Source of the DNA: Thalassotalea nanhaiensis
GTDB taxonomy: Bacteria > Pseudomonadota > Gammaproteobacteria > Enterobacterales > Alteromonadaceae
Length of the DNA stretch: 64,000 nucleotides
NCBI RefSeq assembly: GCF_031583575.1
Contig: NZ_CP134146.1
Span: forward strand, 2,542,001-2,606,000
Direction: 5' to 3'
Part shown: positions 30,722 to 52,490 of the stretch, piece by piece
How the letters are laid out: each line of letters opens with the position of its first letter
How positions within the stretch are numbered: position 1 is the first letter of the stretch
Notes under the pieces: generated by a model
Seen by the model: the letters and a program-made list of their open reading frames with translations, nothing else
What the model was told of the DNA's origin: nothing
Databases searched by the model: none
Translations under genes and position numbers: made by a program

Positions 30722-30751
30722 AAAAAGGCTTCTGCATGCAGAAGCCTTTTT
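30722..30751. terminator. Perfect palindromic terminator after subtilase A1
   Basis: A 30-bp perfect palindrome, arm AAAAAGGCTTCTGCA, 25 bp after the A1 stop and 13 bp before the lipoprotein ATG. The same hairpin, with one wobble, follows A2 at 41720. Confidence 0.9.
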
Positions 30752-30776
30752 CATTATTACCTTTTAGATCTAGAGA

Positions 30777-33700
30777 TTATTTTCTACGACGAGAAAACAA
30801 CCCTAAACCAGCTAAGATGATGAAGCCAAGACCAGTAGTACCACCACTACTCTTGTTCTCAACATTCACAGATACTGTTTCTGCGAAACTTGCTTTATCG
30901 CCATTAGAGCCAATCATTTCAAAGGTCACAACCTCATCATGAGATACTTTAGGAGCATCAAAGCTTACACTTGCACCAGCACCAATCAAGCTAACCGCTG
31001 GACCTGAAACTTGTGTCCATTGATACGATATTTCAGGGTTATCAATAACAGCATCAACAACACTTGCTGATAACGTTACTGGCTTACCTTCTTTAACAGT
31101 ATCAACCGAAGAGTTTACACTGAAGCTTGGACGACCGGCATAAAACACTGGCTCAGATGATTTAGTTTCCATAGCTGAGCTCGTATTTACACCAGCTGTA
31201 ACAACAGGTGTTGCATCGATTAAGCCTAGTACTTCAGAAGCATCCAACACTAAGTTGAACTCTAATGCATTTGCGCCATCAACTTGTGTGTGCTGCCAAG
31301 TTAAGTTGTTGTTTTCTACAGCATAAGTAAATTCATCGGCGTTCATTTGCATTGAAGCACCTTCAACAACATCATCTTTAAGTAAGATATCAACGTTGAC
31401 ACCTTCAGATAACATCATTTGGAAGTCATAATCGCGATTTTCACCACTATTATTTGCTGATACACGCAAAGTTACGACAATTTTATCGCCATTGATAGTT
31501 GGCTCACTAATGGTCACATCATCTTCACCACGAACCATATTTACACGTACCGCACCAATATTCTGGTTTAACTCTGGTGTGGTTCCCAACCAGAATACAC
31601 CATGATAGATATCATCTTGCATCATTGGTTGATCCCATTGAACACGAGTCACAACTTCTTCACGAGGGGCTACCGCAGTTGGTACACTTACACTCATTGA
31701 TTCATCATCATAAGTCACATTGGTAACAGAGAACTTAACGCTATCCATGATTGGTGCTTCTGCACACTCCATGCCTTCGTCAGCTTCCTCACCTTCAGCA
31801 CAAACCATTTGATGTTCTTCAAGTTCTGCAGGACCTTCAGCCCAGTTATGTACTAATACCCAGTAAGTATCTTGAATTGGATCAACAATATCGATTAATT
31901 CATCTGAGTCTGCTTGCGCACTCATATAACGAATTAACCCCATTTCAATAGCAGTAGAAACGGTGCCGTCCAAATCGGCATCAATACCTACGTAAATATC
32001 TACATCTGGTGATGTTGTTTCCATAACATCAACAACTAGACGTTTAGTATCCGCTTGTACGTTTAACGGAATAGCATAGATGGTTTTGTTATCTTCTTCT
32101 TGCCAATGCCAAATTTGATTATTTGTAGCATCTCGCATAAGTTCAATTTCATAAACGTCTGCTTTAGCAATACCTGATTTGCTCAGTTGTAATTCGTCAG
32201 TACCAATAGTAACAATGCCTTTAACAGGAGCAGAGTCGTTGGTACGTTTTGCCGTTACTTCTGTAATATCAGGAGCAATACCAGCAATGAAGTTAACCGT
32301 AATTGGCATTGTTTGTACAGGCATAGAATTATCAGTAGGTGTAAGTACTACACGACCATTTACCCACTCATCAGCTAACCCCTGTAGTGCTTCAGCTGTA
32401 AAGTTAATTACCGCTTCTTCACCCGCAGCTAAGCTGATCGTTTCTTGATCCGCCGTTACATTAAAGCCTTCATTATAATATTCAAAACTCACATTCCAGC
32501 TACCATCTTTGGTGGCTTTAAACGTACGAGTCCATGAACAATCAATTAAACATTCGCCTTTAGAAAGACTAGGCATGTTCATTTGATGAGGCTGACCATG
32601 CCACCCTTCAATGCTGTCAACCATACCAAACTGTTCAGCATATGGATTAGCAGCTAAATAACCTGCACGGGTTTCGTTAAGTACTAAACCAGCTTCAATT
32701 GCTAAATTAACACGTGCACTACCTGAACCAGTACGATGCATATCGGCACGATTTTTCACACCATCATAGTCATCATCTTCAGTAACAGCAGTAAAGGCAG
32801 TCGTCATTAATGCCGATTGTGCTTCTGCAGGTGTCCAATCAGGTTGTGCTGCTTTCATTAACAAGTACATACCGGCAATATGTGGCGTTGCCATCGATGT
32901 ACCATCCATGAAACGTGCATCACCATTTATTTGTGCATAAACAGGGTTCGCTGAGCTATGCATACGATTACCAAGACCTGCTGCTAAAATAGCAACCCCC
33001 GGAGCACCAATATCAGGAATAAGGTAATCACCGGTAAAGTAATCTGGACCACGTGAAGTAAATGGCGCAGTAATGTCTGCTTTATCTTCATTTAATACCA
33101 GTTCAGAGTCTGTAAAGCTAACCTTATGGCCTTCACCTTCGCCTAACCAGGCTAAAAGAGTTTCACCATCAGCTTTATTTAAATGTACTGTTGGAAGTAC
33201 ATGCAAATCGTTAGCAACATTGTCATACTCTTCATCAGAGTTGATGAAAATCATACCAGCTGCGCGAGTTCGAAGAGCTTCAGCACCTTTTGATAAGCGT
33301 GATAATGGCTCGCCATCGGCATCAACACCGCCACGACGACAAATTACCACTTTACCTTCAACAGATTCAGCAGTGTAATAAGCAGGTAACGAATACTTAC
33401 CACAATAACCTACACCACCGGCCGTTTCAGCACCTGAAGACGCTTCAACATCACCAGCATAAACAACATCTAATGGTGTATCTAAGCCAACACCTGATGT
33501 TGCGCCCTTACCAATTAAATCAGCAAGCTCTGTTGCGCCACCGCTAAATGTTGCGGTTTTCTCTTCAGTAAAATCACGAGAATGAGTTAATGCAGCTACG
33601 GTAGTTACCCAAGGCGAGTTACCCGGTGAACCAACTGTTTTTTCACCATTTCGGCCAGAGTTACCAGCAGCAACAGCAGTATGAATACCAGCTTCACGAG

Positions 33701-34898
33701 CACTTAAAAATGCTAAAGCATCAGCAGTAAACCAAGGTGAAGATGCGCCGCCACCAACAGAGTAATTTAATACATCTACATTATTGGCAATGGCATGCTC
33801 AATTGAAGCAACAGCGGCACTTGGCGCACAGCCATAAACATTACAAGTTTGGTAAGAAACAATGTTAGCGTGTGGGGCAACACCGCTCATTGAAACAGTC
33901 ATTTCTGAATCATAATATTGATGTTTGTAACTTTGCTCCATGTGTGGATAAACAGTTGGGTATTTCACGTCATGAACTACGTTACCAGCAATCGTTGAAG
34001 AAACATGAGTACCGTGACCATGAGTATCTTGGCCTGTATCAAAGCGCATGTCTGAACTTGACATTCCCGCAACCGATCTAAAGCCTCGATATGATACAAC
34101 ACCGATTAGCTTATCGTTACACCAATAAGGAGAATCTACACAATCACCAAAGTAAACACCTTCGCCATTTGGATTGTTGTGATCATAGCCATCACCGCCA
34201 ATATCAGCAAATGAAGGAGTAAATGGCACGTTATCAAAACCTGCTGCACCTGACCAGCTATAGACTTTCTTTTGGTAAGAAGCGATACCGGTATCCATAA
34301 CACCAATAACAAGCCCTTCACCTTTAGCGCCTTCAATATCAGGATTATCCCAAATAGCTGGTGCGCCAACATGCTGTGGACCTACATCGGTCAATAACTG
34401 TTGCATTTCTTCTTTTTCAACAGCCAATACACCTGGCATTTTTCGAAGTGCTAAGACTTCATGCTCTTCTAAGTCAACAACAAGACCGTTTAATGCAATT
34501 TTAAAGCTATCTTGTAGTTGCACATCACGACCAAGCGTTTTACGTATGTTATCTATCGCTTTATTCTGTTGCAATGCCAAGTAGTTTCCGTATACAACGG
34601 AAGCTGAACTGGCTAGATTTAATTTACCAGTATTTGTAACATTTACACCTTTTGATGCAGTAACGTTAGTGGCTTTAAAACCTTCAATGCCACCTTGGTA
34701 TAAAGCAACAGGCTCGTCTTTTAATAATACAAAGTAGCGACCTTCAAAGTGTGCCTTATTCGATTTGTATTGAGCATTTTGCTGAACAGGTGTTAACTCA
34801 AATGTTGGGATATCATCTGGATATTGACCAGCGGTGGCTCCTAGAGCCATGATCCCTAGCGGCAATGCTAGAGCTATTTTATTTAATTTAAATTTCAA
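30777..34898 (-). CDS. Secreted subtilisin-like protease with GlyGly-CTERM, cassette copy 1 (A1)
   Basis: 1373 residues. A signal peptide (about 1-24), an inhibitor-I9-like prodomain (about 50-165, RYFVLLKDEPVALYQGG), and an S8 catalytic domain with Asp202 (MDTG), His295 (HGTHV), Asn413 (AAGNSG) and Ser668 (GTSMATP). The PA domain inserted at about 480-600 (VGYCGKYSLPAYY, GKVVICRRGG) is typical of large subtilases. Fn3/Ig-like domains follow, then a PKD/REJ-like repeat (QWTQVSGPAVSL) and the C-terminal GlyGly-CTERM: SSGG, a helix and RRRK. It should be exported and cut by a rhombosortase encoded elsewhere. The start is TTG, with GAGGAAA 8 bp before. It is cotranscribed with the pseudo-subtilase B1 55 bp upstream. 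Confidence 0.95.
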   Translation of the reverse strand: MKFKLNKIALALPLGIMALGATAGQYPDDIPTFELTPVQQNAQYKSNKAHFEGRYFVLLKDEPVALYQGGIEGFKATNVTASKGVNVTNTGKLNLASSASVVYGNYLALQQNKAIDNIRKTLGRDVQLQDSFKIALNGLVVDLEEHEVLALRKMPGVLAVEKEEMQQLLTDVGPQHVGAPAIWDNPDIEGAKGEGLVIGVMDTGIASYQKKVYSWSGAAGFDNVPFTPSFADIGGDGYDHNNPNGEGVYFGDCVDSPYWCNDKLIGVVSYRGFRSVAGMSSSDMRFDTGQDTHGHGTHVSSTIAGNVVHDVKYPTVYPHMEQSYKHQYYDSEMTVSMSGVAPHANIVSYQTCNVYGCAPSAAVASIEHAIANNVDVLNYSVGGGASSPWFTADALAFLSAREAGIHTAVAAGNSGRNGEKTVGSPGNSPWVTTVAALTHSRDFTEEKTATFSGGATELADLIGKGATSGVGLDTPLDVVYAGDVEASSGAETAGGVGYCGKYSLPAYYTAESVEGKVVICRRGGVDADGEPLSRLSKGAEALRTRAAGMIFINSDEEYDNVANDLHVLPTVHLNKADGETLLAWLGEGEGHKVSFTDSELVLNEDKADITAPFTSRGPDYFTGDYLIPDIGAPGVAILAAGLGNRMHSSANPVYAQINGDARFMDGTSMATPHIAGMYLLMKAAQPDWTPAEAQSALMTTAFTAVTEDDDYDGVKNRADMHRTGSGSARVNLAIEAGLVLNETRAGYLAANPYAEQFGMVDSIEGWHGQPHQMNMPSLSKGECLIDCSWTRTFKATKDGSWNVSFEYYNEGFNVTADQETISLAAGEEAVINFTAEALQGLADEWVNGRVVLTPTDNSMPVQTMPITVNFIAGIAPDITEVTAKRTNDSAPVKGIVTIGTDELQLSKSGIAKADVYEIELMRDATNNQIWHWQEEDNKTIYAIPLNVQADTKRLVVDVMETTSPDVDIYVGIDADLDGTVSTAIEMGLIRYMSAQADSDELIDIVDPIQDTYWVLVHNWAEGPAELEEHQMVCAEGEEADEGMECAEAPIMDSVKFSVTNVTYDDESMSVSVPTAVAPREEVVTRVQWDQPMMQDDIYHGVFWLGTTPELNQNIGAVRVNMVRGEDDVTISEPTINGDKIVVTLRVSANNSGENRDYDFQMMLSEGVNVDILLKDDVVEGASMQMNADEFTYAVENNNLTWQHTQVDGANALEFNLVLDASEVLGLIDATPVVTAGVNTSSAMETKSSEPVFYAGRPSFSVNSSVDTVKEGKPVTLSASVVDAVIDNPEISYQWTQVSGPAVSLIGAGASVSFDAPKVSHDEVVTFEMIGSNGDKASFAETVSVNVENKSSGGTTGLGFIILAGLGLFSRRRK

Positions 34899-34913
34899 AA
34901 TAATTTCCTCTAA

Positions 34914-34934
34914 TGAGAGGCCTTTGGCCTCTCA
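34914..34934 (-). other. Hairpin between pseudo-subtilase B1 and subtilase A1
   Basis: TGAGAGGCC / GGCCTCTCA with a 3-nt loop, just before the A1 ribosome site. There is no T-run, so it is probably an mRNA-processing or stability element that sets the B:A ratio. A weaker counterpart (TGAGAG/CTCTCA) lies between B2 and A2 at about 45910-45930. Confidence 0.6.
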
Positions 34935-34953
34935 AAATTAATGTCTGTAATTC

Positions 34954-38673: not shown

Positions 38674-38696
38674 TGTTGTCCTCTTGTAAATCTATT

Positions 38697-38777
38697 AATT
38701 GCAAGACATCCAGTTACAACTGTTGTTATTTATAAATGATTATTAACAGCTGAAAATGGCGTTGGGACATTAGTAAA
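38697..38777 (-). promoter_or_regulatory. Conserved leader and upstream element of B1
   Basis: On the minus strand GGATGTCTTGCAATT (38697-38711) precedes ACAAGAGGAC, the ribosome site. TTTACTAATG (38768-38777) lies 95 bp before the start. Both words recur before B2 at nearly the same distances, while the bases between have drifted, so they are likely functional. Confidence 0.55.
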
Positions 38778-38971
38778 TAAAAACTTGGCCTCTAACAATG
38801 GCAATAATTACAATTCAATTACAAGTTTACATCAACAAAACATCAATTTCGTTTATAATCATGCATTTATAAAAATAAACGAATTACAATTGATGATTTA
38901 TAGATAACTAATAAACTGCTTTTATTTAATAAATATTCAGTAAAGTAAGCCTAAAAAGAGAATCGTTTAAA

Positions 38972-39415
38972 GTTTCAACAAATCTACAGGAATTTAAAAA
39001 CAAACTCGCAGAGTTTTCGGTGCATTCGATATTTGAAATGAAGTTTAAAAAGATTATTGATATCGACTGAAATTTACTCGGAGAAAATATCGGGAGAACT
39101 AGATTTAAATTAGCAAGATTTTAAATACCTCAACAAACCTGCTGGAAGCAAGAAGCAAGAAGCAAGTTTGTTGAGTATTGGTTGAATTCAATATTTGCAT
39201 TGAAGTTCAGATTTATTATTGATTTGGTTTGAAAATTTACACTGAAAAGATATCAGCACCTCAAGGTGCTAAATAGGCAATATTTTAAATACCTCAACAA
39301 ACCTGCTGTAAGCTAGAAACAAGTTTGTTGAGTTTTGGTTGCATTCAATATTTGAATTGAAGTTCAGATTTGCTATTGATTTGGTTTGAAAATTTGTACA
39401 GAAAAGATATCAGCA
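38972..39415. repeat. Three decayed tandem copies of the C1 gene end with hairpins
   Basis: The last ~40 bp of regulator C1 and its downstream terminator-like hairpin occur three times, about 155-165 bp apart. The most recent pair is 39183-39260 and 39338-39415 (GAATTGAAGTTCAGATTT, GATTTGGTTTGAAAATTT and AGATATCAGCA shared). The oldest, at about 39018-39094, is diverged. Hairpins CTCAACAAAC / GTTTGTTGAG stand at 39129-39175 and 39293-39332. A further hairpin AGCACC-TCAA-GGTGCT stands at 39255. AAGCAAG is tandemly repeated at 39146. The rest of the 699-bp gap (38674-38971) holds the B1 promoter region and AT-rich DNA without a gene. Confidence 0.8.
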
Positions 39416-41475: not shown

Positions 41476-41555
41476 AGAGTATTTTTCCAATATTAAAAGT
41501 TAACAAGATACTAACAAAGTAAAATTTAAAAATATAATGCATAAATAATATAAAA

Positions 41556-41576
41556 ATTATGCATATTGGTTATAAA
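41556..41576 (-). promoter_or_regulatory. Upstream element shared with DUF1254-1
   Basis: TTATGCATA-NN-GGTTATAAA, 81 bp before the C1 ATG; 19 of 21 bases match 17809-17829, which is also 81 bp before its gene. Confidence 0.45.
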
Positions 41577-41613
41577 GGTAAAGAAATGTACACTTTTAGA
41601 CTATTTTTAACAA

Positions 41614-41627
41614 CACCCTTAAGGGTG
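41614..41627 (-). promoter_or_regulatory. Palindromic operator candidate CACCCTTAAGGGTG
   Basis: A perfect 14-bp palindrome 139 bp upstream of the C1 start, in the 283-bp gap between A2 and C1. Sites with the same core precede C2, DUF1254-5, an AraC gene and a small membrane gene. Confidence 0.7.
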
Positions 41628-41719
41628 ATTTTTAGGACGGATATTATTTGAGCTGTAATTTAAAGCATAAAATATTCCCCAAAACAATTATAAATATTAT
41701 AGGAATTCGCTTAAAGAAA

Positions 41720-41745
41720 AAAGGCTTCTGCATGCAGAAACCTTT
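41720..41745 (-). terminator. Terminator after subtilase A2
   Basis: AAAGGTTTCTGCA / TGCAGAAGCCTTT on the minus strand, with one G-U pair and a T-run after it. It is the counterpart of the perfect palindrome behind A1, so the duplication included the terminator. Confidence 0.85.
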
Positions 41746-41773
41746 GTTTTATTTGCCTAATTTAGATTTTACT

Positions 41774-44700
41774 TTAATTTCTACGACGAGAAAACAAACC
41801 TAAACCTGCTAAGATTATGAAACCAAGACCAGTAGTACCACCACTACTCTTATTCTCAACATTCACAGATACTGTTTCTGCGAAACTTGCTTTATCGCCA
41901 TTAGAGCCAATCATTTCAAAGGTCACAACCTCATCATGAGATACTTTAGGAGCATCAAAGCTTACACTTGCACCAGCACCAGTCAAGCTAACCGCTGGAC
42001 CTGAAACTTGTGTCCATTGATACGATATTTCAGGGTTATCAATAACAGCATCAACAACACTTGCTGATAACGTTACTGGCTTGCCTTCTTTAACAGTATC
42101 AACCGAAGAGCTTACACTGAAGCTTGGACGACCAGCATAAAACAATGGCTCTGATGATTTAGATTCCATCGCAGAGCTAGTATTTACCGCCGCATCAACA
42201 ACAGGCGTTGCATCAATTAAACCTAGAACATCAGAAGCATCCAGCACTAAGTTGAATTCTAACGCATTAGCGCCATCTACTTGTGTGTGCTGCCATGTTA
42301 AGTTGTTGTCTTCCAATGCGTAAGTAAATCCATCCGTGTTCATTTGCATTGCTGCACCTTCAACAACGTCATCTTTAAGTAAGATATCAACGTTAATACC
42401 TTCAGGTAACATCATCTCAAAATCATAATCGCGATTTTCACCACTATTATTTCCTGATACACGCACTGCTACGACAATTTTATCGCCATTGATAATAGGC
42501 TCACTAATTGATACATCGTCTTCACCACGGGTCATATTGACGCGAACAGAACCAATGTTTCGGTTCAGTTCAGGCGTAGTGCCTAACCAAAATACACCGT
42601 GATAGATATCGCCTTCGTTCATGGCTTGTTGCCATTGAATACGAGTATCAACAACTTCTCTAGGTGCAACTGAGGTTGGCACAGCAATAGACATACTATC
42701 GTCATCATAAGTTACGTTAGTAACCGATATTTTAACGTTATCCATGACTGGCGCATCTGCACACTCCATGCCTTCGTCTGCTTCTTCACCATCACTACAT
42801 ACCATTTGATGCTCTTCAAGTGCTGCCGGACCTTCAGCCCAGTTATGCACTAATAGCCAGTAAGTATCTTGAATTGGGTCAAGAATATCAATTAATTCAT
42901 TTGAATCAGCATTAGCACTCATATAACGAATTAATTGCATTTCCCAAAAGCTTATCTTTCCATCTAAGTCGGAATCAATACCAACATAGATATCAACATC
43001 AGGAGATGTTGTTTCCAATACATCGATAACTAAACGCTTTGTATCTGCTTGAACGTTTAACGGTATGGCATGATATGTTTGGTTATCTTCATCTTCCCAG
43101 TTAAAAATTTCATTGTTAGTAGCATCTCGCATTAGTTCAAATTCATGAACTTCAGCTTTGGCAATACCCGATTTGCTTAGTTGCAACTCGTCAGTACCAA
43201 TAGTAACAATGTCCTTAACAGGTGCAGAATCATTAGTACGTTTTGCCGTTACTTCGGTAATTTCAGGAGCAATACCAGCAATGAAGTTAACCGTTATTGG
43301 CATTGTTTGTACTGGAATAGCATTATTGTCAGGTGTTAATATCACCCTTCCGTTAACCCATTCATCAGCTAAACCTTGCAGCGCTTCTGCAGTAAAATTA
43401 ATTACCGCTTCTTCACCTTCAGCTAGAGTAAATGATGATTGATCGGCAACTAGGCTGAAGCCTTCATTGTAATATTCGAAACTAACGCTCCAGCTACCAG
43501 CTTTGGTTGCTTTAAACGTACGAGTCCATGAACAATCAATTAAACATTCGCCTTTTGATAGGCTCGGCATATTCATTTGATGAGGTTGACCATGCCATCC
43601 TTCGATGCTTTCAGCCATGCCATACTCTTCAGCATACGGGTCTGCCGCCAAATAACCTGCTCGAGTTTCGTTAAGCACTAAACCGGCTTCTATTGCTAAA
43701 TTAACACGCGCACTACCAGAGCCTGTTCTATGCATATCGGCACGGTTTTTCACGCCGTCATAATCATCATCTTCTGTAACAGCAGTAAACGCGGTTGTCA
43801 TTATTGCTGATTGTGCTTCAGCTGGCGTCCAGTTAGGACGAGCGGCTTTCATCAACAAGTACATACCGGCAATATGTGGTGTTGCCATTGATGTACCACT
43901 CATGAAACGTGCATTACCGTTTATTTGTCCAGAAGCGGCTAAAGCTCCACTATGCATTGAGGTACCTAAGCCACTCGCTAAAATGTCAACACCAGGTGCA
44001 CCAACATCTGGAACTAAGTAATCACCAGTAAAGTAATCTGGACCGCGAGAAGTAAATGGCGCAGTAATATCGGCTTTATCATTATTAAGCACTAATTCTG
44101 AGCCAGTAAAGCTTACTTGATGACCTTCACCTTCGGCTAACCAATCAAGAAGAGCTTCACCATCGACCTTATTTAAATGTATTGTTGGTAATACATGTGG
44201 GTCATTAACAACATTATTAAACTCATCGTCTGAGTTGATAAAAATCATCCCTGCTGCACGAGTTCTTAATGCTTCAGCACCTTTTGATAAACGCGATAAT
44301 GGCGTTCCATCTGCAGAATCAACTCCACCACGACGACAAATAACTACTTTGCCTTCAATGGAATCAGCACTGTAATATGCTGGTAATGAATATTTACCAC
44401 AGTAACCAACACCACCAGAAAGTTCGGCATAAGTTAAACTTTCAACATCGCCCGCATAAACCACGTCTAAAGGTACATCAAGACCAACGCCTGAAGTCGC
44501 ACCTTTACCAATTAACTCAGCAAGTTCCGTAGAGCCTCCGGTAAATGTCGCAGTTTTTTCTTCGGTAAAATCGCGAGAATGCGATAAAGCAGCAACCGTC
44601 GTTACCCACGGAGAGTTACCCGGTGAGCCTATTGTTTTCTCACCAGCGTGGCCATCGTTACCTGCAGCAACAGCAATATGAATACCAGCTTCGCGTGCAC

Positions 44701-45895
44701 TAAGAAATGCTAATGCATCGGATGTCATCCAAGGTGAACGAGCGCTACCACCAACCGAATAATTTAGCACATCAACATTATTCGCAATGGCATGCTCAAC
44801 TGAGGCGATTGCTGCACTTGGCGCACAACCATATACATTACAGGTCTGATAAGACACAATGTTCGCGTGAGGTGCTACGCCACTCATTGATACTTTAATG
44901 TCAGAAGTGTAATACTTATGCTTGTATGAACGCTCCATGTCTGGATGAACAGTTGGGTAGCTTACATCATGCACCAGATTACCTGCAATAGTGGATGCAA
45001 CATGAGTACCATGCCCATGTACATCTTGCCCGGTATTGTAGCGCATATCATAAGTGCTAACTCCAGAGATGGATTTAAGTCCCTCATATGAAACAACGCC
45101 AATAACCTTATCGTTACACCAATAAGGTGAATCGATACAATCACCAAAATATACACCGCTACCATTTGGGTTAATATGGTCATATCCGTCAGCACCAATA
45201 TCCGCAAAAGACGAATTAAAGTCAATGTTGTTAAACCCTGCTGCGCCAGCAAAAGTGTAAACCTTTTTATGATAAGAGGCGATACCAGTGTCCATAACAC
45301 CAACGATTAAGCCTTCGCCTTTTGCTCCTTCAACATTTGGATTATCCCAAATTTCAGGAGCGCCAACGTGTTGCGGGCCTACATCAGTCAATAATTGCTG
45401 CATTTCTTCTTTTTCAACAGCCAAAACACCAGGCATTTTGCGTAACGCCAGAACCTCATTTGGTTCTAAATCAACTAGCAAACCATTCAATGCAATTTTA
45501 AAACTATCTTTTATCGTTACAGTACGACCTAATGCTTTATTAATTTTTAACGATGCACTATTTTGTTTTAATGCTAGGTAATCACCATAAACAATTGATG
45601 CAGAACTGGCTAAATCAAGTTTTCCTTGAGCGTTAGAATTAGATCCGCTTGAAGCAGCAATGTTAGTCGCTTTAAAACCTTTTATACCACCTTGATATAA
45701 GGCTACGGGTTCATCTTCAAGCAAAACAAAATAACGATTTTGTATTTTAGCGTTATTCGCTTTTATGGTCGCATTTTGCTCGGCTTTCGATATTTTAATG
45801 GTTGGAATATCGTCCGGAGACTTTCCGGCTACGGCGCCTAAGGCCATAATGCTCATTGGCAATGCCAAAGCAAGCTTATTTAATTTAAATTTCAC
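41774..45895 (-). CDS. Secreted subtilisin-like protease with GlyGly-CTERM, cassette copy 2 (A2)
   Basis: 1373 residues, colinear with A1 and by eye more than 80 % identical. The triad is intact: Asp202 (MDTG), His295 (HGTHV) and a Ser near 669 (GTSMATP). The same prodomain, PA insert, Ig-like tail, REJ-like repeat and GlyGly-CTERM (SSGGTTGLG, helix, RRRN) are present. The last ~350 bp are almost identical to A1 at the DNA level, whereas the prodomain (residues 25-130) has drifted much more. The start is GTG. Loops near the active site differ (YTFAGAAGFNNIDFNSS against YSWSGAAGFDNVPFTPS), so substrate preferences may differ. It follows B2 by 45 bp. Confidence 0.95.
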   Translation of the reverse strand: MKFKLNKLALALPMSIMALGAVAGKSPDDIPTIKISKAEQNATIKANNAKIQNRYFVLLEDEPVALYQGGIKGFKATNIAASSGSNSNAQGKLDLASSASIVYGDYLALKQNSASLKINKALGRTVTIKDSFKIALNGLLVDLEPNEVLALRKMPGVLAVEKEEMQQLLTDVGPQHVGAPEIWDNPNVEGAKGEGLIVGVMDTGIASYHKKVYTFAGAAGFNNIDFNSSFADIGADGYDHINPNGSGVYFGDCIDSPYWCNDKVIGVVSYEGLKSISGVSTYDMRYNTGQDVHGHGTHVASTIAGNLVHDVSYPTVHPDMERSYKHKYYTSDIKVSMSGVAPHANIVSYQTCNVYGCAPSAAIASVEHAIANNVDVLNYSVGGSARSPWMTSDALAFLSAREAGIHIAVAAGNDGHAGEKTIGSPGNSPWVTTVAALSHSRDFTEEKTATFTGGSTELAELIGKGATSGVGLDVPLDVVYAGDVESLTYAELSGGVGYCGKYSLPAYYSADSIEGKVVICRRGGVDSADGTPLSRLSKGAEALRTRAAGMIFINSDDEFNNVVNDPHVLPTIHLNKVDGEALLDWLAEGEGHQVSFTGSELVLNNDKADITAPFTSRGPDYFTGDYLVPDVGAPGVDILASGLGTSMHSGALAASGQINGNARFMSGTSMATPHIAGMYLLMKAARPNWTPAEAQSAIMTTAFTAVTEDDDYDGVKNRADMHRTGSGSARVNLAIEAGLVLNETRAGYLAADPYAEEYGMAESIEGWHGQPHQMNMPSLSKGECLIDCSWTRTFKATKAGSWSVSFEYYNEGFSLVADQSSFTLAEGEEAVINFTAEALQGLADEWVNGRVILTPDNNAIPVQTMPITVNFIAGIAPEITEVTAKRTNDSAPVKDIVTIGTDELQLSKSGIAKAEVHEFELMRDATNNEIFNWEDEDNQTYHAIPLNVQADTKRLVIDVLETTSPDVDIYVGIDSDLDGKISFWEMQLIRYMSANADSNELIDILDPIQDTYWLLVHNWAEGPAALEEHQMVCSDGEEADEGMECADAPVMDNVKISVTNVTYDDDSMSIAVPTSVAPREVVDTRIQWQQAMNEGDIYHGVFWLGTTPELNRNIGSVRVNMTRGEDDVSISEPIINGDKIVVAVRVSGNNSGENRDYDFEMMLPEGINVDILLKDDVVEGAAMQMNTDGFTYALEDNNLTWQHTQVDGANALEFNLVLDASDVLGLIDATPVVDAAVNTSSAMESKSSEPLFYAGRPSFSVSSSVDTVKEGKPVTLSASVVDAVIDNPEISYQWTQVSGPAVSLTGAGASVSFDAPKVSHDEVVTFEMIGSNGDKASFAETVSVNVENKSSGGTTGLGFIILAGLGLFSRRRN

Positions 45896-45940
45896 AATAA
45901 ATTCCTCGATGAGAGACTACCGCCTCTCAATATTAATTTG

Positions 45941-48900
45941 TTATTTACGTACACGACGATTAATGAATGTTAAAGCCGCTAATAAAATAAATAGCGAGTT
46001 TGTAGAGCCACCACCGGTTGACGATGCTTCAGAATCAGACTCTGGTGCAGCTTGTTCCGGCGCAGATGTTGACTCTGCGGACGCTGTTGCAGCGGCAGTT
46101 ACATTAAAGTTCAATGTTGAAGATGTCGTATTAACGCCATCATGAGCAGCAACAGTTGCTTGATAGGTCCCTACTTGATTGAGCGTGCCAGAGATCACAC
46201 CAGCTTTTGAGATAACTAGGCCTTGTGGTAAATCTGTGCTGGTAAAGGTGATACCATCACCTTCAGCATCAACAAATGAAGCTGACAACGATATTTCCAC
46301 TGACTCACCTTGTGCACCGGCTACTACAGATAAAGCTTCAACTACGGTAGGTGCAATATCATTACGATTATTTATATTAATAACCACATCAACTACTTTC
46401 GAGTCCCGGTTAACGTAATCAGCGTGCAGTTTTATCACGTATGATTTAGTATTTTCATAGTCTAATGCATCACTATTGGCAACAGTAATCGTGCCATCAG
46501 TAGCCACTAAAAAAGGTGTTCCTGGAAGTGAATTGACTTGATATATAGGGCCAGGGCTGCCTGTCCAAAAGAAATAGTTGCTAGCTATACCAACTTTGCC
46601 AATTACTGTACCTGCTGCAGCGTTTTCATAAACATTAAAGCTTTGATTAGCTTTTACTGAAGGATCAACTGATGATTGCTTGCCTGTGAAATAATTATTT
46701 TCATTGCCTATTTCAAAAATCATCACTCCAGGATAACAATCTTCATGTACAATCCAATTACCAACAGATACAACATTTGGATCACATTGATAAGTAGTAC
46801 CCGCTGAAATTCTTGCTGATTGGCCAGGCTCTATTATTTGCTTGATACCCCACTCTATTGGAGTTTGATCTTCTTCTGATAGTAAAGTAACAGCTGCCGA
46901 ACTAGCTAAATAGGTAACCTTTTCTTCAATACAATAATCTTCATTCCATGATTTAGGCTGACAGTTATAATCCCACCAATATGGATAACCATCTTCACCG
47001 GTGTGATCGATAACCTCTTCATAATAATCGCCATTAATGACTGGGTTATAACGGAGCACTTTGCTATCAAACGTAGATTGAGCATCGCGATCTGTTGCAA
47101 ATTGCCAGCCTACCTTTTGATTCCACGCATCAACGCTTTGAAAGTCATGATGATAAAGTTTGTCTAAACAGATGTTCGCTACAGCAGTGTCATCGCCCGG
47201 CGAAACGTCTGCCGGTAACTCTGAATATCTAACCCTACCTGTTGGATTCCAATATTCATAAGGAATGCTAAGATCGAGATATTTAGTTACCGGTTGTGAG
47301 TCATTATTTAAAAGGATCTCAAAATAACCTAATTTATCCGCGTCTGTTGAGTTTACTTCTAGACCATGGGGATCGGCGTTATATTTATCAGCAATCGCTT
47401 CTGCATAAGCTGTAAAATAGACTAAAACATGACCAGCTTTATCAAAGTGCTCAGCCATAGGTACATCGAATTTATCAAACATTTGTACTGCAACTGACAA
47501 TTTTTGCCCCGACTCACAAAGTGCTTCAGGATTAATGGTTGCCCCTATGTTTTTAATTAAATTACCTTGTCCACTTGCTTTGGTTGTGTCTTTAACTGGT
47601 ACTGTATGCATTAACGGCATGGTATATACTGTTTTTGCTAAATTACCTTCATTTTTAACATCAATTACCGTACTTTCAAGCCAGCCGCCAGAATTTCTAA
47701 CTAGCTGTGAAATTATTGGTGCATCATAGGGCAGTATTGTAGTTGTAGTGGCCATAGTTGGCTTTGCCACTTCTTTATTGCTTTTGGGAAACACTTGCCA
47801 AGGCATTTTAAGTTGTGCTGACTGACCGTCTTGATTATTAAACACCAAATAGCCGTTAACAGAGGTTTTTGACCAATTTTCAATCGTATAATCAGTCGTT
47901 GTAGTTAACGTTCCATCTGTAAGTTTCTCAGCATCTACGCTTAATGTAACGGTAAAGATTACAGAACGATTTGCCGGCACATTAATGGTTTCAGGATAAA
48001 TAAAGCTGACCGCCTCATTATTCGCTTTATCGCCATTAAGTGTTGTACCTACGGTATAAGTTTGAACTTGGTCGGTTAAATTTTTAATGGTGATGTCACG
48101 GGTTACTGATGTTTGCGTACTTGCTTCAACAAAACCAAAAGCAAGGCTTGGTTGATAGGAACTAGATTCCCAAACAACTGCTTTTGAAGTTATTGCTGTT
48201 GCTCCATCAACTAAACCGCTGCCCATAAATGGTACTTCAGCGATTTTATGAGTGCTCATTTCATACTCTTCAAAATAGTGGCTACCACCAACTATGTTGT
48301 CGGCCAGTGCACTATTGGTAACCAAAGCCTTTGCCTCAATTGGACTTAAATGAGGAAATTGCGCCAAAATTCGAGCAGCAGTACCCGCAGCATATGCTGC
48401 AGCGTAAGTATGGTGTGCTTCAAAAACCCCTTGCTCAGTACCCGTTCCAGCTAGTGGAGCAACAACATTTTCAGCTGGGCCAACAACTTCAGGTTTAAGT
48501 AACTGAACACCACGAGTAGGTCCTGCAGGCGTGAAACTAGATAAAGAAATATCTTCTTCGTTAATACTTACCGAGCCTACCGTTAATGCTTCAGGTACGG
48601 CAGCACGCCATGCTAAATTAAAATAGTTATCCATAGCAGTTTTACCTGCGCCAATAACAAGCAAAGAGCCGGCAGCGCTTACTCGACGAATTAACCCAAT
48701 TTCACGGGTAGGATGTGATCCAGAGGTATCATCTTCGACATAAAACGCAGCATTACCGTATGAATTCATCACGATAACATCTGGTCTGTCACTAATATCG
48801 CCGTCTTGGTTCGGATCAACAATTGCATCTAAAACTGGGTAAAAATACCTATAATCCCAATCCCAAGTTTTATAAAATAATATTTTAGCATCTGGAGCTT

Positions 48901-49684
48901 CAGCCAAAACCTGCGCAGCAACAGCTGTGCCAGATGGAATAGCGCCAGAATCAACGTTATCATCTTGCTCTGCTTCAATCGGGTTATAATCTAAAGAGTG
49001 GTAACCTTCGCCAGCCGCTGAAAAATCTAAACCACCAATAATAGTTTCGGTTGGAAATCCATCCCAGGCATTACTTCTATTTGCCCAAGCTTGATCATAA
49101 GCTTCACGAGTACCGGCGCCGCCTAAAGATTTATGAGTGTAATCAATACCATTACCGACAATAGCAACGGTAACCGCATCACCTGGGTCTTTAACTGTTA
49201 AGAAAGGATATTTTTTAAATTCATCGTTGCTAGTATAAGATGGCTCTTCATTTAACAGCTCTGCATAAATAACATGTTCATTGGTTGAAATGTCTTTAAC
49301 CGCTTGGTGACTCATTTGCACGTAGAGAATATTTTCAGTCAGTCGAGCCTTATGAGTAATAATAGCGCTAGGATCTAATTCTCGTATTGCTGCTATTACT
49401 TGTTCTTGTTGTTTTTCAACTAGGTTTATAATGGAACTACGATCAGCTCCTAAACCGTCATAAGACGGATCAAGTGCGCTTTTTTCCGCTAAACCAATTA
49501 AATATACGCCGATGTTTTCATCTTTCTTTTCAAAAGAAGATGTTATCTCGTTTTGTGGTGTTGTGCTTATGGTTAATTGTCCTGTAGATAGCTTATTGCT
49601 AGCTTCTTGAACATCAACTGCGTTTGCTTTAGCTGCAAAGGCGGCTGTAACCATTAATGCGACAGTAGATGATTTAAAAATCAT
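45941..49684 (-). CDS. Catalytically dead subtilisin-like GlyGly-CTERM protein (B2)
   Basis: 1247 residues, paralogue of B1 (core about 75 % identical by eye). Signal peptide about 1-22. The catalytic Asp is again Gly (IVGNG), the His is Ser (SGTAVAAQ) and the Ser is Thr (HHTYAAAYAAG; B1 has Asn there). Pairs of cysteines are conserved with B1 (CQPKSWNEDYCIEEK, YQCDPN, HEDCYPG). A cadherin-like and a He_PIG domain precede a GlyGly-CTERM (STGGGSTN, helix, NRRVRK) after a Ser/Glu/Ala-rich linker. The first gene of the B2-A2 operon. Losing the same residues in both copies while keeping the frame open argues for a selected non-catalytic role. Confidence 0.9.
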   Translation of the reverse strand: MIFKSSTVALMVTAAFAAKANAVDVQEASNKLSTGQLTISTTPQNEITSSFEKKDENIGVYLIGLAEKSALDPSYDGLGADRSSIINLVEKQQEQVIAAIRELDPSAIITHKARLTENILYVQMSHQAVKDISTNEHVIYAELLNEEPSYTSNDEFKKYPFLTVKDPGDAVTVAIVGNGIDYTHKSLGGAGTREAYDQAWANRSNAWDGFPTETIIGGLDFSAAGEGYHSLDYNPIEAEQDDNVDSGAIPSGTAVAAQVLAEAPDAKILFYKTWDWDYRYFYPVLDAIVDPNQDGDISDRPDVIVMNSYGNAAFYVEDDTSGSHPTREIGLIRRVSAAGSLLVIGAGKTAMDNYFNLAWRAAVPEALTVGSVSINEEDISLSSFTPAGPTRGVQLLKPEVVGPAENVVAPLAGTGTEQGVFEAHHTYAAAYAAGTAARILAQFPHLSPIEAKALVTNSALADNIVGGSHYFEEYEMSTHKIAEVPFMGSGLVDGATAITSKAVVWESSSYQPSLAFGFVEASTQTSVTRDITIKNLTDQVQTYTVGTTLNGDKANNEAVSFIYPETINVPANRSVIFTVTLSVDAEKLTDGTLTTTTDYTIENWSKTSVNGYLVFNNQDGQSAQLKMPWQVFPKSNKEVAKPTMATTTTILPYDAPIISQLVRNSGGWLESTVIDVKNEGNLAKTVYTMPLMHTVPVKDTTKASGQGNLIKNIGATINPEALCESGQKLSVAVQMFDKFDVPMAEHFDKAGHVLVYFTAYAEAIADKYNADPHGLEVNSTDADKLGYFEILLNNDSQPVTKYLDLSIPYEYWNPTGRVRYSELPADVSPGDDTAVANICLDKLYHHDFQSVDAWNQKVGWQFATDRDAQSTFDSKVLRYNPVINGDYYEEVIDHTGEDGYPYWWDYNCQPKSWNEDYCIEEKVTYLASSAAVTLLSEEDQTPIEWGIKQIIEPGQSARISAGTTYQCDPNVVSVGNWIVHEDCYPGVMIFEIGNENNYFTGKQSSVDPSVKANQSFNVYENAAAGTVIGKVGIASNYFFWTGSPGPIYQVNSLPGTPFLVATDGTITVANSDALDYENTKSYVIKLHADYVNRDSKVVDVVININNRNDIAPTVVEALSVVAGAQGESVEISLSASFVDAEGDGITFTSTDLPQGLVISKAGVISGTLNQVGTYQATVAAHDGVNTTSSTLNFNVTAAATASAESTSAPEQAAPESDSEASSTGGGSTNSLFILLAALTFINRRVRK

Positions 49685-49707
49685 TTCAGTCCTCTTGTTA
49701 CTTTATA

Positions 49708-49783
49708 AATTGCAAGACATCCAAATTTCATACGAGTAATTTTTGTTATGAGTATAAAAAGTGGCATTGCATGCATTAGTAAA
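49708..49783 (-). promoter_or_regulatory. Conserved leader and upstream element of B2
   Basis: GGATGTCTTGCAATT (minus strand of 49708-49722) then ACAAGAGGAC before the ATG, and TTTACTAATG at 49774-49783, 90 bp upstream; the same words precede B1. The remaining 410 bp to C2 are AT-rich with no gene. Confidence 0.55.
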
Positions 49784-50089
49784 CAAGTTCGAAAGTCAAG
49801 CAAGGTTATGAAGGTCGTTTATAGATTAATAAAGCGTCATATAAACGATTACAAAAGGTTTATAGTCATACATATCAACAACTTAAAGTAACAAAAAACA
49901 AAGAGGAAATGACAGTTATAACTGTATGAACAGTTTCTTCATAGTCAACTTTTAATAAAATACGCTAATTTAATAAGTGAAAAATCAAGAGCTGTAGCAA
50001 TAAACCAATACAGGAAGTGCTGGTAGGAAGTGCTATTTGGCTTTAAGTATTAATAGATGCAGATAGAGAGTTCCCTTTGGAAATATTCA

Positions 50090-50118
50090 AGCTCTAGCTA
50101 AAAGTATTAGCTAGAGCT
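50090..50118. other. Strong hairpin downstream of C2
   Basis: A perfect 12-bp stem AGCTCTAGCTAA / TTAGCTAGAGCT with a 5-nt loop, 75 bp after the C2 stop. There is no T-run on the minus strand, so it is an uncertain terminator or mRNA 3'-end stabiliser. Confidence 0.55.
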
Positions 50119-50192
50119 CGTTCATTGATAAAAAGCTATATATTTTGAATATTTGCACTGGCTGCCTAAAGACTAAGCTAAGCACTAATCAA

Positions 50193-52331
50193 TCAAGGTT
50201 TATCAACCATAGTGCTAATTGGCAATGCAAAAATATCGGAGTCATTAATGCTGTTTAGCGTTAGCATTATACTTTGCTTACCTGCTGGGGCTATACCAAA
50301 ATACTTTCGCACTGTTCCAGATGGGTAAGTACTGACAATCTGTTCGGTGCTAGACATAGTTTTACGTTTTATCAGGTCATGATTTTTATTTCTTGAGACG
50401 TAGTAAATACTATCGTTTTGCCAAAAAAAGCTCGCAAAATCAGTGGTTGCCAAATCTTTAGCCAGTAGTTGACTCTCCTTGGTGTTTTGGTTAAATTGCC
50501 AGATGCCACTTTCACCTTTTCTACTTACATATAAATGGCCATCAGTGCCTTCAACAGCAAAAATTTCATCATTAAACGTGAGTTGAACTATTTCTTTAGT
50601 ATTGAGATTAAACTTGAAAATACCTGACTTTCCACTTTTTTCAGATGCAAAATAAATTGTATTATCACTTATAGACCAATTAATACTTCTAGCTGCATAA
50701 TTTCCAAGTAGCTCTAACTCTCCACCAGGAAGTGTACCTAGATACCAGTCCGGATGCTCATCATTGCTATTTTTAATGGTTACCAGAAACTGTTTTCCAT
50801 TTGGTGAAATTCTGTGCGAAAATGCGGTGCCCAAATCCTTGGTCAGGTTTTTATATTCGTTCGCAGCTTTCAGCCATATGTCCCACTTATCTGCGCGATT
50901 AGAAATAAATAATATGCCATCATTAGCAACATATTGACCATATAGATCTCGAGAAGAAGAAGATGCTCGCTGAATTTCTGTTCCGTCTTTTAATGAGCGT
51001 TGGCTGATAAACTCTTGACTCAAATGACGAGAAAAATACAGTTCTGAAGTGTCGTAATTAAAGCTAAGGTTATTTGGAGTAATTAACCGATGTATTATTT
51101 TTTCAGATTTGGTTTGTGGGTTTATCGCTAGCGTTAAGTATTTGCCATCCTGCTGAACATTAGTATAAATGTTATTTTGGTTATGCTCCCAAACCAAGCC
51201 AACAATAGATAGTTTATTGGCCAGTAAAACACTTTCTTGAGCATTTTTATCTATTAAAATAAGTTCAGCACTACTTATATTTTCGCGAATAAAGGCAACT
51301 TGTTTTGAGTCGGCAGAGTATACTGCCTTATAATCTTTGACATCCTTGTTAGGAAAACTAATTTGTTTACTCGACGATTCATTCAAATTAAACTCGAATA
51401 AAGCTACACCATTTTTTGTTTTTTTCGAAAACACAATGTATTTGCCATTGGGCGACCAATCAATCCCGCTCAGGTAAGAAGTATAAGTGCAGCCAGAGTC
51501 AATTAAACTATCTTGGTTGGTAATAATTTGACGAATACGCAACTGACATTGACCATCAACGCTAATACGCATATAAGCAATACTTTCATTATCTGGTGAC
51601 CAACTAGGTGAAACCTCCTCTTCATCTACCATTGTTAATAGTCGTAATGGTACGGTTTCATCCTTTAAATCTTTTATATACAGTTGTCCTGGTTGCTGCT
51701 TGCGCACCCATTCAAAAGCCATATAACGTCCATCTGAAGAAATAGCAGGGTGTTCTTCAATACCTTCAAAGTTAGTTATTTTAGTTGGATTTAATGGTAC
51801 TGATTCGATTTTATTTTGGCTAACATAATATGTATCAACAAATACACTGACAAAAAGCAATATAAGTAATGCAGAAAAGGTCAGATAACCCCCTTTAAAC
51901 TTCACTTTGTCGATAAAAGCCTTAATCCAAACATAAATATTGTCAATAGAGGAAGGTAAGGCTGTTGATTTAGATGGGGAAGCAATATCAGAAGTTACAA
52001 TAGGCTCGGGTAAAGCAACAAGTTTATAGCCAACTTTTGGCAAAGTTTTAAAATATTCATCGCTGTTGACGCCCAAGTCGTCAAATACCTTGCGAATATG
52101 CCACATAGCATTGATATAACCGCGTTTACCAACAGGGTAATTACCTTGCCATAGTAGCTCAATGGCTAGTGCTCTATCGACTATTTGATTCTCATTCTTA
52201 AGAAACAGCTTTAAAAACTCAAAAACTTTAACAGGCAGTTTAATCGACTGTTCATCGTTGGCAACTGTCATTTCATTACAGTTGACAATTAGTTTTTCCA
52301 CACGATATTCATTGTGAGGTAATTCAATCAT
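50193..52331 (-). CDS. Membrane-anchored winged-helix regulator with beta-propeller-like outer domain (C2)
   Basis: 712 residues from the ATG at 52331 (GGTGG 8 bp before; a TTG six codons earlier is less likely). Same plan as C1. The winged helix (LPVKVFEFLKLFLKNENQIV, GKRGYINAMWHIRKVFDDLG, FKTLPKVGYKLV) lies at about 10-105. A proline/serine linker leads to a membrane helix at about 155-175, and then TolB/PD40-like repeats (HPAISSDGRYMAFEW, SPSWSPDNESIAYMR, IDWSPNGKYIVFS, HRISPNGKQFLV). By eye it is about half identical to C1, less than the proteases are to each other. That would fit regulators that have diverged to sense different signals or different sites. It lies 509 bp upstream of B2. 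Confidence 0.9.
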   Translation of the reverse strand: MIELPHNEYRVEKLIVNCNEMTVANDEQSIKLPVKVFEFLKLFLKNENQIVDRALAIELLWQGNYPVGKRGYINAMWHIRKVFDDLGVNSDEYFKTLPKVGYKLVALPEPIVTSDIASPSKSTALPSSIDNIYVWIKAFIDKVKFKGGYLTFSALLILLFVSVFVDTYYVSQNKIESVPLNPTKITNFEGIEEHPAISSDGRYMAFEWVRKQQPGQLYIKDLKDETVPLRLLTMVDEEEVSPSWSPDNESIAYMRISVDGQCQLRIRQIITNQDSLIDSGCTYTSYLSGIDWSPNGKYIVFSKKTKNGVALFEFNLNESSSKQISFPNKDVKDYKAVYSADSKQVAFIRENISSAELILIDKNAQESVLLANKLSIVGLVWEHNQNNIYTNVQQDGKYLTLAINPQTKSEKIIHRLITPNNLSFNYDTSELYFSRHLSQEFISQRSLKDGTEIQRASSSSRDLYGQYVANDGILFISNRADKWDIWLKAANEYKNLTKDLGTAFSHRISPNGKQFLVTIKNSNDEHPDWYLGTLPGGELELLGNYAARSINWSISDNTIYFASEKSGKSGIFKFNLNTKEIVQLTFNDEIFAVEGTDGHLYVSRKGESGIWQFNQNTKESQLLAKDLATTDFASFFWQNDSIYYVSRNKNHDLIKRKTMSSTEQIVSTYPSGTVRKYFGIAPAGKQSIMLTLNSINDSDIFALPISTMVDKP

Positions 52332-52490
52332 TAAATACCACCGTTGCAAGCATCAATTTCGGTTAGTAACTAAACAAAATAGATAACAAAATAAAAGGGC
52401 TCCAATTGTTTATATTAAAACAAAAGTAATTTCCGACATATTCTTATTTTATTGAACATCACAATATTCAAATTATAAGTCGGTATATAC

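What the first reader, a model, noticed from the sequence alone, without database searches (positions are those of the whole stretch)
30777..52349. Duplicated cassette: trans-membrane regulator, dead subtilase, live subtilase
Seen: C2-B2-A2-C1-B1-A1 in one direction, with matching sizes (about 700, 1240 and 1373 aa), matching intergenic hairpins and matching terminators. Known: CadC-like regulators sense outside and bind DNA inside; GlyGly-CTERM proteins are cut by rhombosortase. Inference: a self-contained surface-proteolysis module in which a periplasmic propeller senses a signal and drives a pseudoenzyme/enzyme pair. I know of no described system of this form.
Basis: partly seen in the sequence, partly recalled or inferred. 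Interest (0 to 1): 0.87.

Follow-up and report, generated by a model that had tools for sequence, protein, structure and literature searches.

The report
Membrane-regulated dead-and-live protease gene pairs
Marine gamma-proteobacteria carry a recurring gene trio in which a membrane-spanning regulator sits beside genes for one working and one permanently inactive surface protease, with a matching DNA control site in front of them, which suggests a dedicated and apparently undescribed way of switching on protein digestion at the cell surface.

Summary
Two cassettes lie on the minus strand: C1-B1-A1 (52349-41774) and C2-B2-A2 (41490-30777). C is a one-TM winged-helix/propeller regulator of ToxR/CadC layout, B a subtilase without its catalytic Asp, A a subtilase with intact triad; both end in GlyGly-CTERM-like tails, and the genome has a rhombosortase. 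The trio recurs: at 57 B loci read, A is the neighbour at 57 and C lies within two genes at 51; in 395 family genomes B (16) and C (18) occupy the same six genera. All 34 A checked keep D/H/N/S; no B of 34 keeps the Asp or more than one triad residue. New here: an array of 11-bp direct repeats (core AWWWGA), mostly 140-200 bp upstream of B, phase-locked to a weak -35 box. Held out, it reappears before divergent A genes and before metalloprotease and TonB-receptor genes beside C-type regulators, and before 0 of 188 other genes not next to C or B. So C most likely activates B-A from this operator. B's role is unproven; best guess, a non-catalytic partner of A. The cassettes are not simple duplicates (A 83%, B 59%, C 41-43% identity).

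The parts
50193..52349 (-). C1: membrane-anchored transcriptional regulator (winged helix, one TM, PD40 propeller)
   Evidence: Trans_reg_C 3.6e-07, PD40 3.7e-22; one hydrophobic segment, 153-171; the real start may be the ATG a few codons in (inference)
49815..49858 (-). operator: 4 x 11-bp direct repeats upstream of B1
   Evidence: score 7.0, the weaker of the two window arrays
49776..49803 (-). putative B1 promoter: TTGCTT-16-TACTAA, -35 box 11 bp after the array
45941..49684 (-). B1: catalytically dead subtilase with GlyGly-CTERM-like tail
   Evidence: Peptidase_S8 2.4e-14; none of the three triad residues kept
45896..45940 (-). B1-A1 gap with hairpin before the A1 start
41774..45895 (-). 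A1: subtilase with Asp202/His295/Ser669, PA and PKD domains, GlyGly-CTERM-like tail
41720..41745 (-). terminator-like stem after A1
   Evidence: same stem after A2
39373..41490 (-). C2: regulator of the second cassette
38810..38853 (-). operator: 4 x 11-bp direct repeats upstream of B2
   Evidence: score 9.9
38770..38798 (-). putative B2 promoter: TTGTTA-17-TACTAA
34954..38673 (-). B2: catalytically dead subtilase
34899..34953 (-). B2-A2 gap with hairpin GAGAGGCC-AAA-GGCCTCTC
30777..34898 (-). A2: live subtilase of the second cassette
30722..30762 (-). terminator-like repeat after A2

Best explanation
C is a one-component membrane regulator. Its cytoplasmic winged helix binds head-to-tail 11-bp repeats just upstream of a weak -35 box and activates the B-A genes; its periplasmic propeller receives the cue (inferred). 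B and A are exported together and, through their GlyGly-CTERM-like tails and rhombosortase, held at the cell surface (inferred). A is the working protease. B lost catalysis once, long ago, and has since been kept and inherited with A, most likely as a non-catalytic partner that binds substrate or product and tunes A or reports back to C. Shown here: gene linkage, loss of catalytic residues in B, the repeat array and its phasing to a promoter-like sequence. Inferred: that C is the protein that binds it, activation, surface location, and every step of B's function.
For: Linkage: A beside B at 57 of 57 loci, C within two genes at 51 of 57. Co-occurrence: of 395 family genomes 16 have full-length B, all among the 18 with C at 1e-60; same six of 52 genera. 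Triad, corrected set: D, H, N, S in 34 of 34 A; in 34 B the Asp is kept in 0, His in 3, Ser in 2, never more than one; GTS motif in 34 of 34 A and 0 of 34 B (first table). B-only signatures: G[IV]DYT in 34 of 34 B and 0 of 34 A, DPNxDGDxSD in 29 of 34 B and 0 of 34 A; dN 0.33, dS 1.78 between B1 and B2. In a tree of 19 A, 19 B and 5 other subtilases B is one clade, support 1.000, on a long branch; A-B distance correlation 0.958, reached by 1 of 2000 within-genome reshufflings. Array: log-likelihood ratio 167 at period 11 against 53.5-74.3 at 9, 10, 12, 13 and 22.6-32.8 on six shuffled sets; -35-like TTG in phase in 29 of 61 cases, 11.1 expected. Held out, score 9 or more: 15 of 21 new B, 10 of 12 A, 0 of 21 C, 0 of 76 other genes, 2 of 1050 shuffles. 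Other genes scoring 8 or more: 8 of 62 next to a C-like gene or B, 0 of 188 elsewhere, p = 1e-5; orphan A-like genes 0 of 3. Rhombosortase 176.8 bits, cut-off 84. C has a hydrophobic segment between residues 89 and 171 in 30 of 30, the only one in 28.
Against: No expression, binding or activity data. A persists without B and C in G103 at the same site, and A-like subtilases reach 1e-150 in 48 of 390 genomes, only 16 of which have full-length B. In 14 of 57 loci A and B are divergent, so a single operon is not general. Six of 57 B loci have no C within two genes. Some B promoters score poorly (window B1 7.0; G210b 3.5; G210c 2.0, the last inside an operon whose first gene scores 9.8), and 6 of 21 held-out B stay below 9. 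Another OmpR-type protein could read the array. The held-out B loci come from a genus that also gave training sequences. I saw the promoter alignment before testing the -35 phase. The AlphaFold model of B failed (mean pLDDT 29.5), that of C is poor (53.7).
Confidence: 0.6

Rival explanations
1. B is the input, not a helper of A: the dead subtilase binds peptides or other cues and is read by the propeller of C, so B is a co-receptor for C, as CspC and CspA receive germinant signals for CspB in Clostridioides difficile.
For: B and C co-occur more tightly than B and A-like proteins do; the one family genome with C and no B match (G237) has a C split into two ORFs; B keeps a conserved non-catalytic patch; pseudo-subtilases as receptors are precedented (passages of PMC6636752, abstract of PMC12880746).
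Against: C and B are neighbours, so joint loss explains the co-occurrence; C-type genes also stand near a reprolysin-like protease (L115) or, for a distant C-like gene, beside a TonB receptor (L113) without a B next door; a surface-held protein is not obviously in reach of a periplasmic propeller.
Confidence: 0.2
2. B is a dedicated inhibitor, folding chaperone or protection factor for A during export, in the way of subtilisin propeptides.
For: B is encoded just before A on the same strand in 43 of 57 loci and co-diversified with it; uncontrolled surface proteolysis would be harmful (general knowledge).
Against: A carries its own Inhibitor_I9 propeptide; A occurs alone in G103 with an intact GTS motif; B is nearly as large as A and has its own surface tail, more than an inhibitor needs.
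Confidence: 0.2
3. An ordinary protease cluster: regulator and proteases sit together by chance duplication and B is decaying.
For: Subtilases are numerous in this genome and A genes show signs of gene conversion.
Against: Linkage kept over several families, one B clade, purifying selection, no internal stops in 34 of 34 B, shared array.
Confidence: 0.05

Closest known systems
ToxR-like one-component receptors (CadC-cadBA of E. coli; ToxR)
   Same: N-terminal OmpR-type winged helix, single TM helix, C-terminal outer domain, adjacent target genes (definition from passages of PMC5430869)
   Different: outer domain is a TolB/DPP-like propeller; targets are a dead/live subtilase pair; sites are long head-to-tail 11-bp arrays, whereas a passage of PMC5430869 describes a head-to-head arrangement at Cad1
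CspB / CspA / CspC of Clostridioides difficile
   Same: live and dead subtilases working together, the dead ones in signal reception (passages of PMC6636752, abstract of PMC12880746)
   Different: spore proteins with a jelly-roll insert; two triad residues lost there; no membrane regulator or surface tail known to me; no sequence relation tested
PhoB and its PHO boxes
   Same: tandem 11-nt direct repeats recognised by an OmpR-type winged helix (passage of PMC4415409)
   Different: C has no receiver domain, is membrane-bound, and the unit (AWWWGA) differs
GlyGly-CTERM / rhombosortase sorting (VesB of Vibrio cholerae)
   Same: tail architecture and a rhombosortase in the genome
   Different: no processing shown here; dead enzymes among the presumed cargo
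PCSK9, a subtilase that works by binding
   Same: weak sequence match of B1 to the PCSK9 subtilase domain (E 0.0036)
   Different: match is marginal; no claim of relation beyond the S8 fold

Membership tests
ToxR-like / CadC-type regulators (C) | N-terminal OmpR-type winged helix without receiver domain | tested here: met
   Trans_reg_C at residues 34-110, above cut-off in C1 and C2; no receiver domain listed
ToxR-like / CadC-type regulators (C) | single TM helix then an extracytoplasmic domain | tested here: met
   hydrophobic segment after the winged helix in 30 of 30, unique in 28; topology not measured
ToxR-like / CadC-type regulators (C) | activates an adjacent promoter by binding upstream | tested here: inconclusive
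   phase-locked repeat array at B, divergent A and other neighbours of C; no binding assay
Active S8 subtilases (A) | Asp-His-Ser triad and oxyanion Asn | tested here: met
   34 of 34
Active S8 subtilases (B) | Asp-His-Ser triad | tested here: not met
   of 34 B: Asp in 0, His in 3, Ser in 2, never more than one
S8 fold (B) | homology to the subtilase domain | tested here: met
   Pfam PF00082 1.4e-14 and 2.4e-14; profile match to A, probability 86.9, E 4.2e-06, 220 columns; structure prediction failed
GlyGly-CTERM proteins | Gly-rich motif, TM stretch, basic end | tested here: met
   33 of 34 A and 33 of 34 B by a simple pattern; the NCBIfam scan of the window proteins listed no GlyGly-CTERM model
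GlyGly-CTERM proteins | rhombosortase in the same genome | tested here: met
   TIGR03902 176.8 bits against a cut-off of 84; 0 of 14 control genomes over it
GlyGly-CTERM proteins | cleavage by rhombosortase | not testable with these tools
   needs a knock-out and proteomics
Csp germination proteases | jelly-roll insert and spore location | not tested
   no jelly-roll search made
PHO-box-type operators | tandem 11-nt direct repeats next to the -35 region | tested here: met

The most novel reading that the evidence does not exclude
The dead subtilase B is a surface or periplasmic receptor for the products of live A, read by the propeller of C, which then drives B-A: a proteolysis-sensing feedback circuit built on a pseudo-subtilase, present in several families of gamma-proteobacteria.
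Probability: 0.2. Interest if true: 0.82.

Novelty: new variant of a known kind. Interest (0 to 1): 0.66.

Why it matters
Pseudoproteases kept beside their live relatives are known in few bacterial settings (to my knowledge). This module gives many natural pairs, apparently a single ancient loss of catalysis, and a testable switch with a defined candidate operator, so the question what a dead protease is kept for can be asked by simple genetics. It also suggests targets and a binding site for a class of winged-helix/propeller regulators: secreted proteases, metalloproteases and TonB receptors.

Tried and rejected
Intergenic hairpins as a special control element: 26 of 29 evaluated B-A gaps but also 13 of 20 control gaps, so not specific. 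Structure of B: alignment of only three sequences, model unusable, so no fold search was made with it. Structure of C: only part of the propeller is moderately confident; Foldseek lists TolB, DPP IV and other propellers at low TM-scores, enough for 'propeller', not for blade number. Simple tandem duplication of whole cassettes: rejected because C1 and C2 have nearer relatives elsewhere. B as a decaying pseudogene: rejected. Autoregulation of C through the same array: not seen, 0 of 29 and 0 of 21 C promoters reach 9. Errors on the way: an antisense ORF was first taken for B in G468 (L149); it stands in the table, was corrected, and the triad was recounted on the corrected set. One search took the wrong strand for that one locus again (one of its 34 B rows) and printed wrong letters for non-B hits; for B I therefore cite. 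In one search the same antisense ORF is one of the 203 'other' genes, and B of L149 is missing there. In one search the script stopped before its last counts; one search repeats them. Paper searches that showed no description of such a trio, seen as listings with starts of abstracts: (open PMC papers only); one search was made for PHO boxes.
Full report
What is there. The window lies at 2542001-2606000 of a 4.31 Mb single-contig genome; the relatives of B found in named contigs include a Thalassomonas and a Thalassotalea. Pfam places C as winged helix plus PD40/DPPIV propeller, B as S8, A as S8 with I9 propeptide, PA and PKD domains. Among solved structures the best match of C1 is a TolB protein, and its DNA-binding part weakly matches the cholera toxin transcriptional activator, ToxR (E 0.0007).

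The catalytic state. In an alignment of 34 A and 34 B proteins, Asp, His, Asn and Ser are present in 34 of 34 A. In the 34 B the Asp is Gly, Ser or Ala throughout, His is kept in 3, Ser in 2, and no B keeps more than one triad residue; the GTS motif is in 34 A and in no B (corrected set; first table). B has its own signatures: G[IV]DYT in 34 of 34, and an Asp-rich, calcium-loop-like DPNxDGDxSD in 29 of 34; neither occurs in A. B1 and B2 differ with dN 0.33 and dS 1.78 by a simple method. In a tree of 19 A, 19 B and 5 other subtilases the B form one clade with support 1.000 on a long branch. The simplest reading is one ancient loss of catalysis followed by long maintenance.

How general it is. 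The own genome has five B-A pairs and six close C genes. Four pairs have C next to them. The fifth (1637636-1645556) has its C 14 kb away; in genome G224 the corresponding pair and C are adjacent, between the same flanking genes, so they belong together. The sixth C stands beside a 1732-aa subtilase. In 395 genomes of the family, 16 hold a full-length B (over 600 bits) and 18 hold C at 1e-60; the 16 are all among the 18, in the same six of 52 genera. The two extra genomes are G237, whose C is split, and G294, 78% complete with B fragments. These searches scored only two candidates per genome, so they tell presence, not copy number. In the order, 12 of 394 sampled genomes hold B, eight of them outside the family, and all eight have A and C as neighbours. 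In one genus outside the family 26 of 117 hold B; the 21 new loci all have A and C next to B or A. Altogether 57 B loci were read: 5 own, 20 family, 8 order, 3 met in passing (G210 twice, G224 once), 21 in that genus. A is the neighbour at 57 of 57 (same strand 43, divergent 14; in two loci A is split into two ORFs, in one it runs over the end of the fetched stretch and was found by tblastn). C lies within two genes at 51 of 57. Left out before counting: B fragments (L120, G294, L037), the doubtful L038 match, and L036, which repeats L071.

Results against strict dependence. A occurs without B: G103 has only A at the site where its relatives G027 and G071 have C-B-A, with at most a 39-residue trace of B before it. 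A-like subtilases reach 1e-150 in 48 of 390 genomes, 16 of them with full-length B. C-type regulators also stand beside other secreted proteins.

The operator. Six close B upstream regions share a promoter-like block, TTGnnn-16/17-TAnTAnT or nearly so. Above it lies a tandem repeat with an 11-bp period. In 34 B upstream regions the mean z at period 11 is 2.41, no other period from 6 to 17 exceeds 1.07, and 11 regions pass z 3 at period 11 against at most 3 at any other; 122 other genes average 0.38 at period 11. A four-unit model fitted to 28 non-redundant regions gives a log-likelihood ratio of 167 at period 11, 53.5 to 74.3 at 9, 10, 12 and 13, and 22.6 to 32.8 on six shuffled sets; the unit reads nnnnnAWWWGA. 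In the five own-genome loci it starts 173 to 182 bp before B; a few other loci place it elsewhere, from 61 to 240 bp. TTG trinucleotides downstream of the array fall in its phase in 29 of 61 cases, 11.1 expected, most often exactly 11 bp after the last unit (13 cases). I had seen the promoter alignment before making this test. The layout resembles PHO boxes, defined as two 11-nt direct repeats (passage of PMC4415409).

Held-out tests. With the model fixed, the first set of loci gives scores of 9 or more in 23 of 32 B (mostly training data), 3 of 5 A with a promoter of their own, 0 of 29 C and 7 of 203 others. In the 21 new loci it gives 15 of 21 B, 10 of 12 A, 0 of 21 C, 0 of 76 others, and 2 of 1050 shuffled B regions. 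Where A and B are divergent, A usually has its own array. Pooled, other genes beside a C-like gene or B reach 8 in 8 of 62 cases, other genes elsewhere in 0 of 188; A-like genes beside C or B in 15 of 18, orphan ones in 0 of 3. The eight are three reprolysin-type metalloproteases, two LRR-PKD proteins, an FG-GAP protein, a TonB receptor divergent from a more distant winged-helix/PD40 gene, and a 259-aa DUF6090 protein next to another such gene. In G210 the array stands before the metalloprotease that opens the operon (9.8) and not before the internal B (2.0); in G224 the metalloprotease has it too. These genes were not used to fit the model. The new loci belong to a genus that also supplied training sequences, so they are not fully independent.

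Mechanism. The established part is anatomy: a membrane winged-helix regulator, adjacent B and A genes, and a phase-locked repeat array at a weak -35 box. The inference is that C binds the array and activates. Surface attachment is inferred from tail architecture (33 of 34 A, 33 of 34 B by a simple pattern) and a rhombosortase; dependence of such a protease on its tail and a rhombosortase is described for Vibrio cholerae VesB (title and start of abstract of PMC6219818). Cognate A and B distances correlate at 0.958, B and C at 0.741, A and C at 0.656 over 30 loci; partner reshuffling within genomes reached the observed value in 1, 9 and 8 of 2000 trials. So the pair travels as one unit and C somewhat less so. 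In the window C1 and C2 are far more different than A1 and A2, while an orthologous set (own3 and G224) has similar identities in all three (A 73%, B 78%, C 79%). One reading is that the two cassettes keep the same output under different inputs; gene conversion in A may exaggerate this.

Novelty. Parts and principles are known: ToxR-like regulators (passages of PMC5430869), live/dead subtilase sets in C. difficile (passages of PMC6636752, abstract of PMC12880746), GlyGly-CTERM sorting (passages of PMC3237569). I saw no description of this trio or its operator in seven searches of an open-access library (listings only); that library lacks most subscription papers. I therefore file it as a new variant of a known kind, with the receptor reading of B as the bolder case.

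Noticed in passing
window 39106-39415: Imperfect tandem duplication (copies about 160 bp apart) between C2 and B2 that includes the 3' end of C2.
   Followed up: no
window 30777-31076 and 41774-42073: The 3' ends of A1 and A2 are 98% identical while most of the rest is 67-91%; looks like recent gene conversion of the surface-tail region.
   Followed up: partly
window 23381-24889, 52969-54456, 55706-57181, 57283-58695: Four DUF1254/DUF1214 paralogues flank the cassettes.
   Followed up: no
window 25395-28772: FG-GAP/ASPIC protein with an ArsP-like permease part, downstream of A2; a 60% relative stands just before B in G352 (L076) with its own repeat array.
   Followed up: partly
L030, L081, L156 (TonB receptors, Pfam); L074, L082 by position only: TonB-dependent receptor directly after A in several loci, and reprolysin-type metalloproteases before C or B (L030, L074, L084, L116, L117).
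   Followed up: partly
L113 6722-12256: A distant winged-helix/PD40 regulator divergent from a TonB receptor whose upstream region carries a strong 11-bp array (score 15.9).
   Followed up: partly
L155 7785-11423: Genome G103 keeps A alone where its relatives have C-B-A; no array in front of it.
   Followed up: yes
L149 7750-11433: In one genome the antisense ORF over B is longer than B itself, an annotation trap.
   Followed up: yes
L081 3250-6744: 1164-aa protein without any Pfam match upstream of a B-A pair.
   Followed up: no
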